Shown one piece after another: positions 1 to 32,855 of a stretch of 37,194 nucleotides of DNA. Below the pieces are notes generated by a model. That model was not told where the DNA came from. It ran no database searches and saw only the letters and a list, made by a program, of their open reading frames with translations. This stretch comes from an uncultured Trueperaceae bacterium. GTDB taxonomy: Bacteria; Deinococcota; Deinococci; Deinococcales; Trueperaceae. The position numbers were made by a program, and so were the translations under genes. The DNA lies in assembly GCA_913057165.1 (NCBI GenBank), contig CAJXNS010000013.1, positions 1 through 37,194 on the forward strand, given 5' to 3'. Every line of letters begins with the position of its first letter. Position 1 is the first letter of the stretch.

Positions 1-396
<396 letters not shown>

Positions 397-29470: not shown

Positions 29471-29546
<76 letters not shown>

Positions 29547-29551
29547 CGCTA

Positions 29552-29626
29552 GGCCCCTTCGACTAGCGGTTAGGTCACCACCCTTTCAAGGTGGCGGCAC
29601 GAGTTCGAATCTCGTAGGGGTCACCA
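29552..29626 (+). tRNA. tRNA-Glu (anticodon UUC)
   Basis: A 75-base tRNA including encoded CCA, five bases after tRNA-Lys. The acceptor stem GGCCCCT pairs with AGGGGTC with one G-U pair; the anticodon loop CTTTCAA gives UUC; the T loop is GTTCGAAT. It is cotranscribed with tRNA-Lys and followed by a terminator. Confidence 0.97.
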
Positions 29627-29660: not shown

Positions 29661-29685
29661 TATGGCAACACGCGTAGCATTTTAG

Positions 29686-29728
29686 TTTCGAAAGCCACCA
29701 GGGTCTCAAACGTTGACAAACTTTCGAA
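29686..29728. repeat. Two TTTCGAA direct/palindromic repeats around the operon promoter
   Basis: TTTCGAAA at 29686-29693 and TTTCGAA at 29722-29728 lie 36 bases apart. The second is inside the promoter spacer and the first just upstream of the -35. Each is near-palindromic, so a dimeric regulator bound to both could control the promoter. Confidence 0.4.
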
Positions 29729-29741
29729 TATAAGGAATACT
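29713..29741 (+). promoter_or_regulatory. Near-consensus sigma-A promoter of the SHMT-like/aconitase-like operon
   Basis: TTGACA (29713-29718), a 17-base spacer, and AATACT (29736-29741). With the rRNA promoter this is the only clear TTGACA in the window. It gives a leader of about 45 bases, and GGAGGA (29785-29790) stands four bases before the ATG, so unlike many neighbours this gene is both leadered and well supplied for ribosome binding. Confidence 0.75.
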
Positions 29742-29794
29742 CGGCAGGCTTGTCGCCATTTACCTTTGATTCATAGGGCGGCTTGGAGGAACCC

Positions 29795-31036
29795 ATGACT
29801 GCGAACCCTGCACCGTCCACCGCCGCCGACCGTCTGGCACGCATCTCGACCGCCATCAGCGACCACGAGTCGTACCGCGACAGCTGCATCGGCTTGGTCC
29901 CAACCGAAAACCGGATGAGTCCGCGCGCACGTGCCGCCATGAACAGCGACCTGGCGCACCGCTACCTATTCCAAAACCCGCAATGGCGTTACGTGGGCGG
30001 TAAGCACCTCGCCGTTGTCGAAGAAACCGCGAAAGAACTCGCCCGCGAACTGTTCGATGCCAAGCACGTCAACGTCCGGCCGCTCTCTGGCGAGAACTGC
30101 ACCAACATCGTGATCCATGCCGTGGTTCCCAAAGGCGGCAACTTCTACCACCTCGCGATGGAAGACGGCGGGCACTTCGCCGCTGCCAGCGTTGCCGACC
30201 GGCTGACCGACAACCGCTTCTTGCTCCCCTTCGACCGGGAGCGCGCCACCATCGACGTGGCCGCCTGCGCCGAGATGTTTGCAAGCCACCCGCCGGACGT
30301 CATCTACCTGGACGCGTCTATGACCACCCAACCCCACCCACTGCAAGAACTGCGCGCCCTGGCAGGCGATGACACCGTGATCGTGTACGACGCGTCGCAA
30401 ACGTTAGGCCTCATTGCCGGTGGCCGGTTCCAAGATCCCCTGCGGGAAGGGGCCGACATCCTGTCGGGCAGCACCCACAAGTCACTCCCCGGACCGCAAA
30501 AAGGCATGATCCTCACCAACCGTGACGACCTGATCGAAGCGGTTGAACGCACGATCTTCCCCGGCCACGTCTCGAACTTCCAGGTGCACCACGTCGCAGC
30601 GCTGGCGGTGACCTTGGCTGAAACGCTTGAGTTCGGACGTGAGTATGCCGACCAGATCATTCGTAACGCCCGCGCCTTGGCTGCAGAACTCCGCAACCTT
30701 GGGCTGGCCGTTCAAACCGGTGGCGGCGAAACGGAAACCCACCAGGTATGGCTGGACGTCACCGCGCTGGCCACCCCCGATGAAGCCGTTGAGCGCCTGC
30801 ACGACGCGAACATCATCGCGAACGTCAACCTGATTCCGACCATGCAAAGCAAAGGCCTACGCCTCGGGGTACCCGAGGTCACCCGTCTCGGTATGACCGA
30901 GGACGACATGCGCGCCATCGCCCGGTTCATGCACGACGCACTCGCCCACGTTCGCCCCATTGAGCACGTCCGCGCGGATGCGGCGCGTCTCGCCAGCGCA
31001 CACACCGAGGTGCGTTACTGCTTCCCAGAGGCGTGA
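29795..31036 (+). CDS. Serine hydroxymethyltransferase-like PLP enzyme with altered active site
   Basis: A 413-residue fold-type I PLP enzyme that aligns along its whole length with glycine/serine hydroxymethyltransferase. Kept: the Schiff-base lysine in STHKSLPGP (K229), D199 under the PLP ring, the ENRMSP segment, and the substrate-carboxylate arginine in GLRLGVP (R356). Changed compared with E. coli GlyA: the Glu of YAEGYP (E57) is F59, the Tyr of RYYGG (Y65) is V67, H203 is Q202 and R235 is Q. The folate contacts and proton-transfer residues are therefore gone. I infer an aldolase, transaldolase or related reaction on an alpha-amino acid, not folate-dependent serine synthesis. It is coupled to the next gene by a GTGA overlap. 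Confidence 0.85.
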   Translation: MTANPAPSTAADRLARISTAISDHESYRDSCIGLVPTENRMSPRARAAMNSDLAHRYLFQNPQWRYVGGKHLAVVEETAKELARELFDAKHVNVRPLSGENCTNIVIHAVVPKGGNFYHLAMEDGGHFAAASVADRLTDNRFLLPFDRERATIDVAACAEMFASHPPDVIYLDASMTTQPHPLQELRALAGDDTVIVYDASQTLGLIAGGRFQDPLREGADILSGSTHKSLPGPQKGMILTNRDDLIEAVERTIFPGHVSNFQVHHVAALAVTLAETLEFGREYADQIIRNARALAAELRNLGLAVQTGGGETETHQVWLDVTALATPDEAVERLHDANIIANVNLIPTMQSKGLRLGVPEVTRLGMTEDDMRAIARFMHDALAHVRPIEHVRADAARLASAHTEVRYCFPEA

Positions 31037-32739
31037 GCACACCCCGCATCGAGCAGATTCTCGGTGCACCGGCAGGCGACGAGGTCCGGCTTAGGCCGGA
31101 CTTGGTCGTTACCGACGACTGGACCACCCCTTCCCTGCTGCCGTACCTGGATGCGCTTGGGACCCACACGTCCAAAGTGCCAACCGTCCTGGTGCACGAT
31201 CACACCTGGGAGGAGGCCGCCTACGACGGGGCTGACGCCAGCAAGGCAGCCGCCCTGAAAGCCACCCGCGACCGCTTCACCGAGCGTTTTGGCGCCACCC
31301 TAATCGAAGGTCAAGGCATCCAACATCATGTCCTGCCGGAACTCGGCCTGGTGAAGCCCGGCTCGGTGGTGCTCGGGAACGACTCGCACACGCCCACGCT
31401 TGGCGCCGCGGGCGCGGTCGCGTTTGCCTCCCAGCCGGTGGGGGTGGCCTTGGCCATGCACACGGGCGAGACCGTGATGCGCGTCCCATCCACCTTCCGT
31501 ATTCGCGTCGTGGGGCAATTGCATCCTGACGTCACCCTGCGCGATGCGGCCCTCACGCTGCTTGATTCCCTCACCGGTGATGGGGGCGTCCCGCTCGCCG
31601 CTGGGGCGTGCTTGGAGTTCAGCGGCGAAGCCGTGGCGGACCTCTCACGCGAGCAGCGCAGCGTGCTGGCGAACATCGCGCCAGAAGCGGTCGCAGCAAC
31701 CAGCCTGTTCGCCAACGGTGACGACACCCACTTGAATGCGGACGTTGAGCTTGACCTTGGCACGGTGCAACCACGCGTGGCGGCGCACCCAAACCCGCGG
31801 CGCTCGGTTGCCCTCAAGCCCGGCCCAACGGAAACGATCGACCGCGTGTTCATCGGGACCTGTTCCGGTGGCACGCTTGATGAGATCAACGCGTTTGCAG
31901 CAGCGCTTTCAGGCAAGGTTGCCGTCCCCACGCAGGTGACGCCGGCGACGCATGCCGTAGCAGACGCCCTTGAGGCTTCCGGTGTGCTCGCGCAGCTCGG
32001 CGCGGCAGGCGTCCAGGTGACACCTCCTGGCTGCGGGGCCTGCTTCGGCTTCGGTATTGAACGCCTGAAGCCGGGCGAGGTGGCGGTGACCACCGGCAAC
32101 CGCAACACCCCAGGGCGGATGGGGTCACCCGATGCGCGCATCCACTTGGCTGGCGGCCGGACGGCGGCCCAGGCTGCCATGCAAGGTCGCCTGCCGAAAC
32201 CCGAGGTTGCGACCGCGTCGCATCCAGAACTTCGTATGGATGTTCCAAAACGCGGCAACCTCGCCCACGTGTTCGGGACGGTCACCACCGACGACCTGAC
32301 GCCATCACACGTGCCTGGCGTAGGATCCAGCAACGACCGCACACGCGACGTGCTGATGGGCCTGCTGTTTCACTACGTGAATCTGCGACCAGACCCCGAG
32401 GCGCTCGCGGGTCGCCTGCTGGTCGCCGATCATGCGTTTGGGATGGGCAGCAACCGCGCAAGTTCGGTCTTGGCTCTCCTTGAGGCCGGCGTCACCGCTG
32501 TGTTGGCGCGCAGTTTTTCGCCGCTCTACCGTGCCGGGGCACGCGATTCAGGCCTACCGACCGTGGTGGTTGACGATGCAGTCCACGACGCCCTACGGAA
32601 CGCCACGCATGCCGAACTCAACCTCGACGCCGGCACACTGGTCGTAGATGGCGTGACGTTTGAGGTACCCGCCGAAAGCGAGCACGAGCGTCAGGTGCGG
32701 CTGCACGGTGGAGCCCTGGCCATGCACGCCGCCTCGTGA
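31033..32739 (+). CDS. Single-chain aconitase / 3-isopropylmalate dehydratase-like hydro-lyase
   Basis: A 568-residue protein joining a LeuC-like large part (about 1-400) to a LeuD-like swivel domain (about 405-530), which in leucine synthesis are separate. The 4Fe-4S ligands are in place: C277 (FIGTCSGGT), C334 and C337 (PPGCGACFG). GNDSHTPTLGAAG (115-127) and GNRNTPGR (355-362) are further family blocks. In the swivel domain the usual GSSREH motif reads GSNRASS (472-478), so Arg is kept while Glu and His are lost. An iron-sulfur (de)hydratase acting on a hydroxy di- or tricarboxylate is likely; the substrate is unknown. Start: GTG overlapping the upstream stop. Confidence 0.87.
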   Translation: MSTPRIEQILGAPAGDEVRLRPDLVVTDDWTTPSLLPYLDALGTHTSKVPTVLVHDHTWEEAAYDGADASKAAALKATRDRFTERFGATLIEGQGIQHHVLPELGLVKPGSVVLGNDSHTPTLGAAGAVAFASQPVGVALAMHTGETVMRVPSTFRIRVVGQLHPDVTLRDAALTLLDSLTGDGGVPLAAGACLEFSGEAVADLSREQRSVLANIAPEAVAATSLFANGDDTHLNADVELDLGTVQPRVAAHPNPRRSVALKPGPTETIDRVFIGTCSGGTLDEINAFAAALSGKVAVPTQVTPATHAVADALEASGVLAQLGAAGVQVTPPGCGACFGFGIERLKPGEVAVTTGNRNTPGRMGSPDARIHLAGGRTAAQAAMQGRLPKPEVATASHPELRMDVPKRGNLAHVFGTVTTDDLTPSHVPGVGSSNDRTRDVLMGLLFHYVNLRPDPEALAGRLLVADHAFGMGSNRASSVLALLEAGVTAVLARSFSPLYRAGARDSGLPTVVVDDAVHDALRNATHAELNLDAGTLVVDGVTFEVPAESEHERQVRLHGGALAMHAAS

Positions 32740-32780: not shown

Positions 32781-32855
32781 GGGCGATTAGCTCAGCGGGA
32801 GAGCGGCCGCCTTACAAGCGGTAGGTCGGCGGTTCGAATCCGTCATCGCCCACCA
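32781..32855 (+). tRNA. tRNA-Val (anticodon UAC)
   Basis: A 75-base tRNA including encoded CCA. Acceptor GGGCGAT/ATCGCCC, anticodon loop CTTACAA (UAC), T loop GTTCGAAT; all stems pair. The ATG of a small ORF follows its CCA after six bases, and no terminator lies between. Confidence 0.97.

What the first reader, a model, noticed from the sequence alone, without database searches (positions are those of the whole stretch)
29795..31036. SHMT homologue that keeps PLP and carboxylate binding but has lost E57, Y65, H203 and R235 equivalents
By alignment in my head, K229, H228, D199 and R356 are preserved, while the Glu and the Tyr that serve retro-aldol chemistry and folate positioning are F59 and V67, and the His that stacks near PLP is Q202. 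That is a coherent active-site rewrite, not random decay, since the flanking RY.GG and GPxxG frames are intact. It suggests a non-folate reaction on an alpha-amino acid.
Basis: partly seen in the sequence, partly recalled or inferred. Interest (0 to 1): 0.7.

Follow-up and report, generated by a model that had tools for sequence, protein, structure and literature searches.

The report
Transaldolase-like enzyme in a lysine regulon
A gene that looks like serine hydroxymethyltransferase is really closer to threonine transaldolases; in a branch of Deinococcus relatives it is always paired with a homoaconitase-like enzyme, shares a DNA control site with the lysine genes, and occurs only where the normal first lysine enzymes are missing, so the pair may be an undescribed way to start making lysine.

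Summary
The reading frame is real. E57 to F59, H203 to Q202 and R235 to Q235 are confirmed; the Y65 loss is doubtful (Y66 fits the site in two of three alignments), and the PLP-stacking His is H127, which is kept. The rewrite is mostly that of L-threonine transaldolases (ObiH, alanylclavam OrfA, fluorothreonine transaldolase): profile scores 381-406 versus 242-283 bits, shared W64, Q317 and K236, and grouping with SHMTs rejected (AU p 0.007). Only Q202 is peculiar to this clade. The gene overlaps, by GTGA, a fused LeuC-LeuD-type homoaconitase-like hydro-lyase. The pair is adjacent in all 10 Trueperaceae genomes that carry the first gene. An operator palindrome in front of the pair recurs almost only at the LysW-type alpha-aminoadipate lysine operon, and in other Trueperaceae in front of homocitrate synthase-LysT-LysU. 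Homocitrate synthase (10 genomes) and the pair (11) never co-occur, and all of these genomes keep LysX. I propose, untested, that the pair replaces homocitrate synthase and homoaconitase: a glycyl unit is added to an oxo-acid (2-oxoglutarate preferred), then dehydrated, giving 2-oxoadipate. Main weakness: 11 LysX-bearing genomes have neither system, and homoisocitrate dehydrogenase was not searched.

The parts
29795..31036 (+). CDS, 413 aa, fold-type I PLP enzyme of the SHMT / L-threonine transaldolase superfamily; K229 is the Schiff-base Lys by alignment
31033..32739 (+). CDS, 568 aa, fused LeuC-LeuD-type aconitase-superfamily hydro-lyase (homoaconitase-like); GTG start overlaps the stop of the first gene (GTGA); cluster Cys C277, C334, C337 and the DHT, DSH, NRN, GR and GSNR motifs are kept
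29785..29789 (+). GGAGG ribosome-binding site 5 bases before the ATG
   Evidence: sequence
29713..29741 (+). sigma-70-type promoter-like site TTGACA-17-AATACT (10 of 12); 2 such sites found in the region against 0.5 expected
29680..29694 (+). degenerate copy (2 mismatches: TTTTAGTTTCGAAAG) of the operator CTTWCGNTTCGWAAG that is well conserved in front of this gene pair in relatives
29721..29735 (+). second operator-like half site CTTTCGAATATAAGG between the promoter hexamers (3 mismatches on the minus strand); weak
   Evidence: sequence

Best explanation
The two genes form a co-translated module of the lysine (alpha-aminoadipate) regulon in Trueperaceae that have lost homocitrate synthase and LysT/LysU. 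SHOWN: sequence, fold and phylogeny place gene 1 with L-threonine transaldolases; gene 2 is an aconitase-superfamily protein with its cluster and catalytic motifs kept; they are always paired; they share an operator with the LysW lysine operon; they never co-occur with homocitrate synthase. INFERRED: gene 1 takes a glycyl unit (from L-threonine or glycine, as a PLP quinonoid) and adds it to an oxo-acid. With 2-oxoglutarate this gives 2-amino-homocitrate, whose OH carbon carries a carboxylate as aconitases require. Gene 2 removes water; the enamine becomes an imine, hydrolyses to oxaloglutarate and loses CO2 to give 2-oxoadipate, which is transaminated to alpha-aminoadipate and passed to LysX/LysW. 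Two enzymes would thus replace homocitrate synthase, homoaconitase and perhaps homoisocitrate dehydrogenase. Succinate semialdehyde (giving 3-hydroxy-2-aminoadipate) is the second candidate acceptor. The chemistry is a hypothesis; nothing was assayed.
For: Pairing: gene 1 in 10 genomes, gene 2 next to it in every one, plus one genome with gene 2 at a contig edge; flanks otherwise mostly differ between genera. Regulon: with up to 1 mismatch, 25 of 31 operator matches in the 10 genomes lie in front of the pair or of lysW; the reversed control pattern gives 6. The lysW-side operator is in 10/11 pair genomes and 8/11 genomes with neither system; in homocitrate synthase genomes it lies in front of homocitrate synthase in at least 4/10, in the order HCS-LysT-LysU-LysX-LysY in three operons read. 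Exclusivity: homocitrate synthase over cut-off in 10/39, pair in 11/39, overlap 0; all are LysX+ (hypergeometric 0.005 among 32 LysX+ genomes, not corrected for kinship). Own genome: LysX, [LysW]-aminoadipate kinase and [LysW]-lysine hydrolase over their cut-offs, a LysW ending EDWGE, no homocitrate synthase, no LysT-like protein beyond LeuC and AcnA, no diaminopimelate decarboxylase over cut-off. All 30 LysX read carry the Asn-Thr of AAA-type LysX rather than Gly-Phe of ArgX (motif from PMC10433800). Transaldolase type; structure neighbours 4bhd/4uqv Z 49-51 and ObiH 7k34 Z 49.5, ahead of GlyA-type SHMTs at 47 or less. Gene 2 model: best match homoaconitase large subunit 4kp2, Z 44.3.
Against: Eleven LysX+ genomes, some near complete (G093, one contig), have neither homocitrate synthase nor the pair, and most still keep the operator at lysW, so the pair is not the only answer to the gap. 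Exclusivity follows the family tree in part (different genera), so the p-value overstates it. The window's own copy of the operator is degenerate (2 mismatches) and G094's is worse. Known transaldolases use aldehydes; a ketone acceptor would be unusual. Gene 2 has lost the His/Arg of LysT's C-x-x-C-MGRH and CTNGR motifs, so its substrate may be quite different.
Confidence: 0.45

Rival explanations
1. Gene 1 is an L-threonine transaldolase or glycine aldolase making a beta-hydroxy amino diacid (for example beta-hydroxyaspartate from glyoxylate) that gene 2 dehydrates, for a purpose outside lysine making; the shared operator reflects general amino-acid control.
For: Family placement; clade-specific basic residues R65, K70, K353 near the acceptor loops suggest a charged acceptor; the beta-hydroxyaspartate cycle is a precedent for glycine plus oxo-acid followed by dehydration (literature found).
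Against: The operator is nearly private to the lysine loci (25/31 matches) and lies in front of homocitrate synthase in relatives; exclusivity with homocitrate synthase.
Confidence: 0.25
2. The pair makes a modified amino acid that the LysX/LysW machinery carries (for example 3-hydroxy-aminoadipate toward 3-hydroxylysine), i.e. carrier-protein-based specialised metabolism, not lysine itself.
For: Co-regulation with the LysW operon; transaldolases usually serve specialised metabolism (PMC8072733); patchy distribution.
Against: No other biosynthetic genes, transporter or NRPS travel with the pair; it is never in a genome with homocitrate synthase, which this reading does not predict.
Confidence: 0.12
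3. Gene 2 is simply the homoaconitase of these genomes, with homocitrate supplied by a repurposed LeuA/CimA paralogue, and gene 1 has an unrelated helper role.
For: Best structural match is homoaconitase large subunit; LysT and LysU are gone; G083 has an extra synthase-like protein at 297.7 bits.
Against: Most pair genomes have only two synthase-family genes, scoring as LeuA and CimA do elsewhere; gene 2 fails all homoaconitase cut-offs and has lost LysT motif residues; it leaves gene 1 unexplained.
Confidence: 0.12
4. An ordinary SHMT, perhaps using another pterin like the M. jannaschii enzyme.
For: Best single PDB sequence match is M. jannaschii SHMT (245 bits), also the best structural match.
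Against: Lacks E57 and the folate-loop residues; tree with M. jannaschii rejected (AU p 6e-5) and with all SHMTs rejected (p 0.007); a normal GlyA is present.
Confidence: 0.04

Closest known systems
L-threonine transaldolases: ObiH/ObaG (7k34), fluorothreonine transaldolase, S. clavuligerus OrfA (alanylclavam)
   Same: Fold; PLP residues Y55, H131, D204, K234, R366; W68, aromatic at F70, H324-Q325, K241; loss of the SHMT glutamate; short folate loop
   Different: H207 replaced by Gln in all 10 members; invariant loop YLFQNPQWRYVGG; stands beside a homoaconitase-like gene and under a lysine operator instead of in an antibiotic cluster
M. jannaschii SHMT (4uqv, 4bhd)
   Same: Nearest single structure; shares Q at 235, S260, N261, H-Q at 316-317
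   Different: Keeps the catalytic Glu and lacks W64 and K236; joint clade rejected
Homocitrate synthase plus homoaconitase LysT/LysU of the alpha-aminoadipate pathway
   Same: Operator, and the homoaconitase superfamily of gene 2; one C-C bond former plus one aconitase-type enzyme
   Different: The C-C bond former is an unrelated PLP enzyme; gene 2 is a fusion with 36-39% identity to LysT and altered active-site motifs
Beta-hydroxyaspartate cycle (glycine + glyoxylate, then dehydration)
   Same: Works like: PLP aldol addition of glycine to an oxo-acid followed by loss of water
   Different: Different enzyme families (established knowledge); not a member

Membership tests
L-threonine transaldolase | ObiH-type PLP residues Y55, H131, D204, K234, R366 | tested here: met
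   Y57, H127, D199, K229, R356 in 10/10
L-threonine transaldolase | Published motif F58, W68, F70 in the mobile loop (PMC8072733) | tested here: inconclusive
   W64 = W68 in 10/10; Y66 at F70; F59 nearby, but loop alignment is uncertain
L-threonine transaldolase | H324-Q325 pair | tested here: met
   H316-Q317 in 10/10; also present in M. jannaschii SHMT
L-threonine transaldolase | H207, partner of H324/Q325 | tested here: not met
   Gln202 in 10/10; His in 6/6 transaldolase-type rows
L-threonine transaldolase | Phylogenetic grouping apart from SHMTs | tested here: met
   16-row branch 95/89; grouping with SHMTs rejected p 0.007; long branches present
L-threonine transaldolase | Uses L-Thr as donor, releases acetaldehyde | not testable with these tools
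   needs an assay
Fluorothreonine transaldolase (TIGR04506) | Score over cut-off and C-terminal aldolase domain | tested here: not met
   252.3 < 650 bits; 413 aa single domain
Serine hydroxymethyltransferase | Catalytic Glu57 | tested here: not met
   F59 in 10/10
Serine hydroxymethyltransferase | NCBIfam subfamily NF000586 cut-off | tested here: not met
   300.5 < 335 bits
Homoaconitase / 3-isopropylmalate dehydratase (gene 2) | [4Fe-4S] cysteines and catalytic motifs | tested here: met
   C277, C334, C337, D56-H57, D117-S118-H119, NRN-GR, GSNR invariant in 7/7
Homoaconitase / 3-isopropylmalate dehydratase (gene 2) | Curated family cut-offs | tested here: not met
   best 254.4 < 385 bits
Lysine (AAA) regulon member | Shared operator with the LysW operon | tested here: met
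   window copy itself degenerate
Alternative alpha-aminoadipate route | Makes 2-oxoadipate or aminoadipate | not testable with these tools
   needs enzymes and tracer work
Alternative alpha-aminoadipate route | Homoisocitrate dehydrogenase dispensable or absent in pair genomes | not tested

The most novel reading that the evidence does not exclude
A two-enzyme entry into lysine biosynthesis that is not described in the papers searched: a transaldolase-type PLP enzyme adds a glycyl unit to 2-oxoglutarate (or succinate semialdehyde), and a fused homoaconitase-like Fe-S enzyme dehydrates the product to give 2-oxoadipate, replacing homocitrate synthase, homoaconitase and possibly homoisocitrate dehydrogenase.
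Probability: 0.4. Interest if true: 0.88.

Novelty: new variant of a known kind. Interest (0 to 1): 0.74.

Why it matters
If right, there is a further way to begin lysine, built from an aldolase family known so far mainly from antibiotic pathways, and a concrete answer to how some Deinococcota with the LysW lysine operon obtain aminoadipate without homocitrate synthase. It would move threonine transaldolases into primary metabolism and give a biocatalyst that may join glycine units to oxo-acids. Even if the exact reaction is wrong, the operator, the exclusivity with homocitrate synthase and the fixed gene pair make the function directly testable.

Tried and rejected
Ordinary SHMT: rejected by residues, cut-off, tree and a separate GlyA. 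Riboswitch or leader RNA upstream: no Rfam match in front of the pair. tRNA-site island: tRNA-Lys/Glu and tRNA-Val flank the pair in the window and L003 only, none next to it in most other loci, so not general. Pair in Actinomycetota: 396 genomes gave homologues of each gene but never adjacent. Lysine operon really being an arginine operon: argued against by the Asn-Thr motif of LysX and equivalog scores for LysZ and LysK, not by experiment. Diaminopimelate decarboxylase as a sign of the DAP route: uninformative, since Truepera radiovictrix has one but no listed dihydrodipicolinate reductase (PMC3356886), and most Trueperaceae have one. A first random-window background for the operator was inflated because the fetched loci were chosen for the site; the reversed-pattern control is used instead. 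The structure model gives no coordinates here, so the Y65/Y66 question could not be settled by superposition.

Full report
What is there. The window is a contig of a Trueperaceae (Deinococcota) genome: the nearest named relatives are Trueperaceae metagenome-assembled genomes. The frame 29795-31036 (+) is a 413-residue protein with a GGAGG site before its ATG. Its TGA overlaps the GTG of the next gene, 31033-32739, so the two are very likely co-translated. Pfam calls them SHMT (157 bits) and Aconitase (204.6 bits). Neither reaches any curated NCBIfam cut-off: gene 1 has 300.5 against 335 for the SHMT subfamily and 252.3 against 650 for fluorothreonine transaldolase; gene 2 has 254.4 against 385. 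The own genome has a separate GlyA and separate LeuC and AcnA, so both genes are extra copies of their kind.

Checking the residues. I aligned 62 sequences: 10 Trueperaceae members, ObiH, the fluorothreonine transaldolase region, the S. clavuligerus OrfA region and other plasmid homologues, M. jannaschii SHMT, GlyAs and Actinomycetota homologues. The alignment places ObiH W68, F70, H131, D204, H207, K234, H324, Q325 and R366 where the literature has them (PMC8072733). F59 replaces E57, Q202 replaces H203 and Q235 replaces R235 in all 10 members. The Y65 claim is unsettled: two alignments put Y66 there, one puts V67. E57 and R235 are also absent from all transaldolase-type rows. K236, in the motif GPxKG, is in 10/10 members and 6/6 transaldolase rows but in no GlyA and not in M. 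jannaschii SHMT. Only Q202 is peculiar to the clade. dN/dS of 0.17-0.28 argues against decay.

What gene 1 is. All members score 381-406 bits with a profile of six transaldolase-type sequences and 242-283 with an SHMT profile; leave-one-out controls behave as expected, except that M. jannaschii SHMT is nearly even. The tree groups the clade with the transaldolases (95/89), and forcing it with SHMTs is rejected (p 0.007). Some transaldolase branches are long, so this is good but not perfect evidence. The AlphaFold model (mean pLDDT 89.5) matches M. jannaschii SHMT and ObiH best (Z 49-51). The conserved Glu of SHMT takes part in the folate-dependent cleavage of serine but not in folate-independent cleavage of allo-threonine (PMC5958214), so its loss fits folate-free aldol chemistry. 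It resembles a transaldolase but fails one published feature (H207), and no activity is known; I call it transaldolase-like.

Its fixed partner. Gene 2 lies next to gene 1 in all 10 genomes that have gene 1, and an eleventh genome has gene 2 at a contig edge. Surroundings differ between genera, so the conserved unit is these two genes. In 396 Actinomycetota genomes the pair was not found. Gene 2 models as an aconitase-superfamily protein, best match homoaconitase large subunit 4kp2 (Z 44.3), with the cluster cysteines and the main catalytic motifs invariant but some LysT motif residues changed.

The lysine link. Upstream of the pair in the relatives lies an imperfect palindrome, CTTWCGNTTCGWAAG. 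In the 10 genomes, 25 of 31 matches with up to one mismatch lie in front of the pair or of the LysW operon; the other six equal the six matches of the reversed control pattern. In genomes with homocitrate synthase the site lies in front of that gene in at least four of ten, where the operon reads homocitrate synthase-LysT-LysU-LysX-LysY onward. So this looks like an old lysine operator that the pair has joined. In the window itself the copy is degenerate (29680-29694, two mismatches), which weakens the case for this one genome.

Distribution. Homocitrate synthase over cut-off is in 10 of 39 Trueperaceae and the pair in 11, with no overlap; all 21 have LysX. LysX of all types carries the Asn-Thr motif of aminoadipate-type LysX. 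In the window's genome the kinase and hydrolase score as [LysW]-aminoadipate kinase and [LysW]-lysine hydrolase, and no homocitrate synthase, LysT or diaminopimelate decarboxylase was found (95% complete). That leaves a gap: an operon that needs aminoadipate, without the known enzymes to make it. A published survey infers the aminoadipate route as ancestral in the phylum and lists a full cluster in Truepera radiovictrix (PMC3356886). Eleven further LysX-bearing genomes have neither homocitrate synthase nor the pair; I cannot explain them, and the exclusivity is partly confounded by kinship.

How it may work (inferred). A glycyl quinonoid from threonine or glycine adds to 2-oxoglutarate, giving homocitrate with an extra amino group. 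An aconitase-type enzyme can remove water from such a molecule because its OH carbon carries a carboxylate. The resulting enamine would become an imine, hydrolyse to oxaloglutarate, the normal intermediate of homoisocitrate dehydrogenase, and decarboxylate to 2-oxoadipate. Succinate semialdehyde as acceptor gives the right carbon count too, but its product suits aconitase chemistry less. Confidence is 0.8 that the pair belongs to the lysine regulon, 0.45 that it supplies 2-oxoadipate or aminoadipate, and about 0.25 for 2-oxoglutarate as the acceptor.

Novelty. The enzyme types are known; a transaldolase-like enzyme with a homoaconitase-like partner under a lysine operator was not found in the papers searched, a library that lacks most subscription journals. 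I therefore grade it a new variant of a known kind, with a categorically new pathway as the open possibility.

Noticed in passing
L127-L135, L227, L231; e.g. G000:C18:24440-24454: Operator palindrome CTTWCGNTTCGWAAG, often as two copies about 200-230 bp apart, in front of lysW or homocitrate synthase; suggests an unnamed lysine repressor, perhaps looping DNA.
   Followed up: partly
genomes G077, G082, G085, G086, G093, G101-G106: LysW/LysX lysine operon present but neither homocitrate synthase nor the gene pair: source of aminoadipate unknown.
   Followed up: partly
G083:C20:115337-116362 (L149, L230): Extra homocitrate/isopropylmalate-synthase-like protein (297.7 bits, under cut-off) in what looks like a catabolic operon with isochorismatase-like and ABC transport genes.
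   Followed up: no
L058-L060, L062-L065, L069, L073, L074 (Actinomycetota): A clade of SHMT-like proteins with a shortened loop (YGGS) and Tyr in place of the PLP-stacking His; function unknown.
   Followed up: no
L024, L054, L056, L057, L067, L071: Another SHMT-like clade with Tyr in place of the His before the PLP lysine and Leu in place of the catalytic Glu, including one Trueperaceae genome (G074).
   Followed up: no
L046 (S. clavuligerus pSCL3) and L047 (Streptomyces sp. FR1 pFRL3): Transaldolase-like genes in uncharacterised clusters (with a TauD-type dioxygenase and NRPS; with radical SAM, P450 and carbamoyltransferase).
   Followed up: no
L005:7648-7731 (-): Cyclic di-GMP-II riboswitch (63.4 bits) in front of a divergent gene upstream of the pair in one relative.
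   Followed up: no
window 1-396 (-): The contig begins inside a 16S rRNA gene.
   Followed up: no
window 29471-29626 and 32781-32855: tRNA-Lys, tRNA-Glu and tRNA-Val flank the pair; the same order is seen in L003 only.
   Followed up: yes
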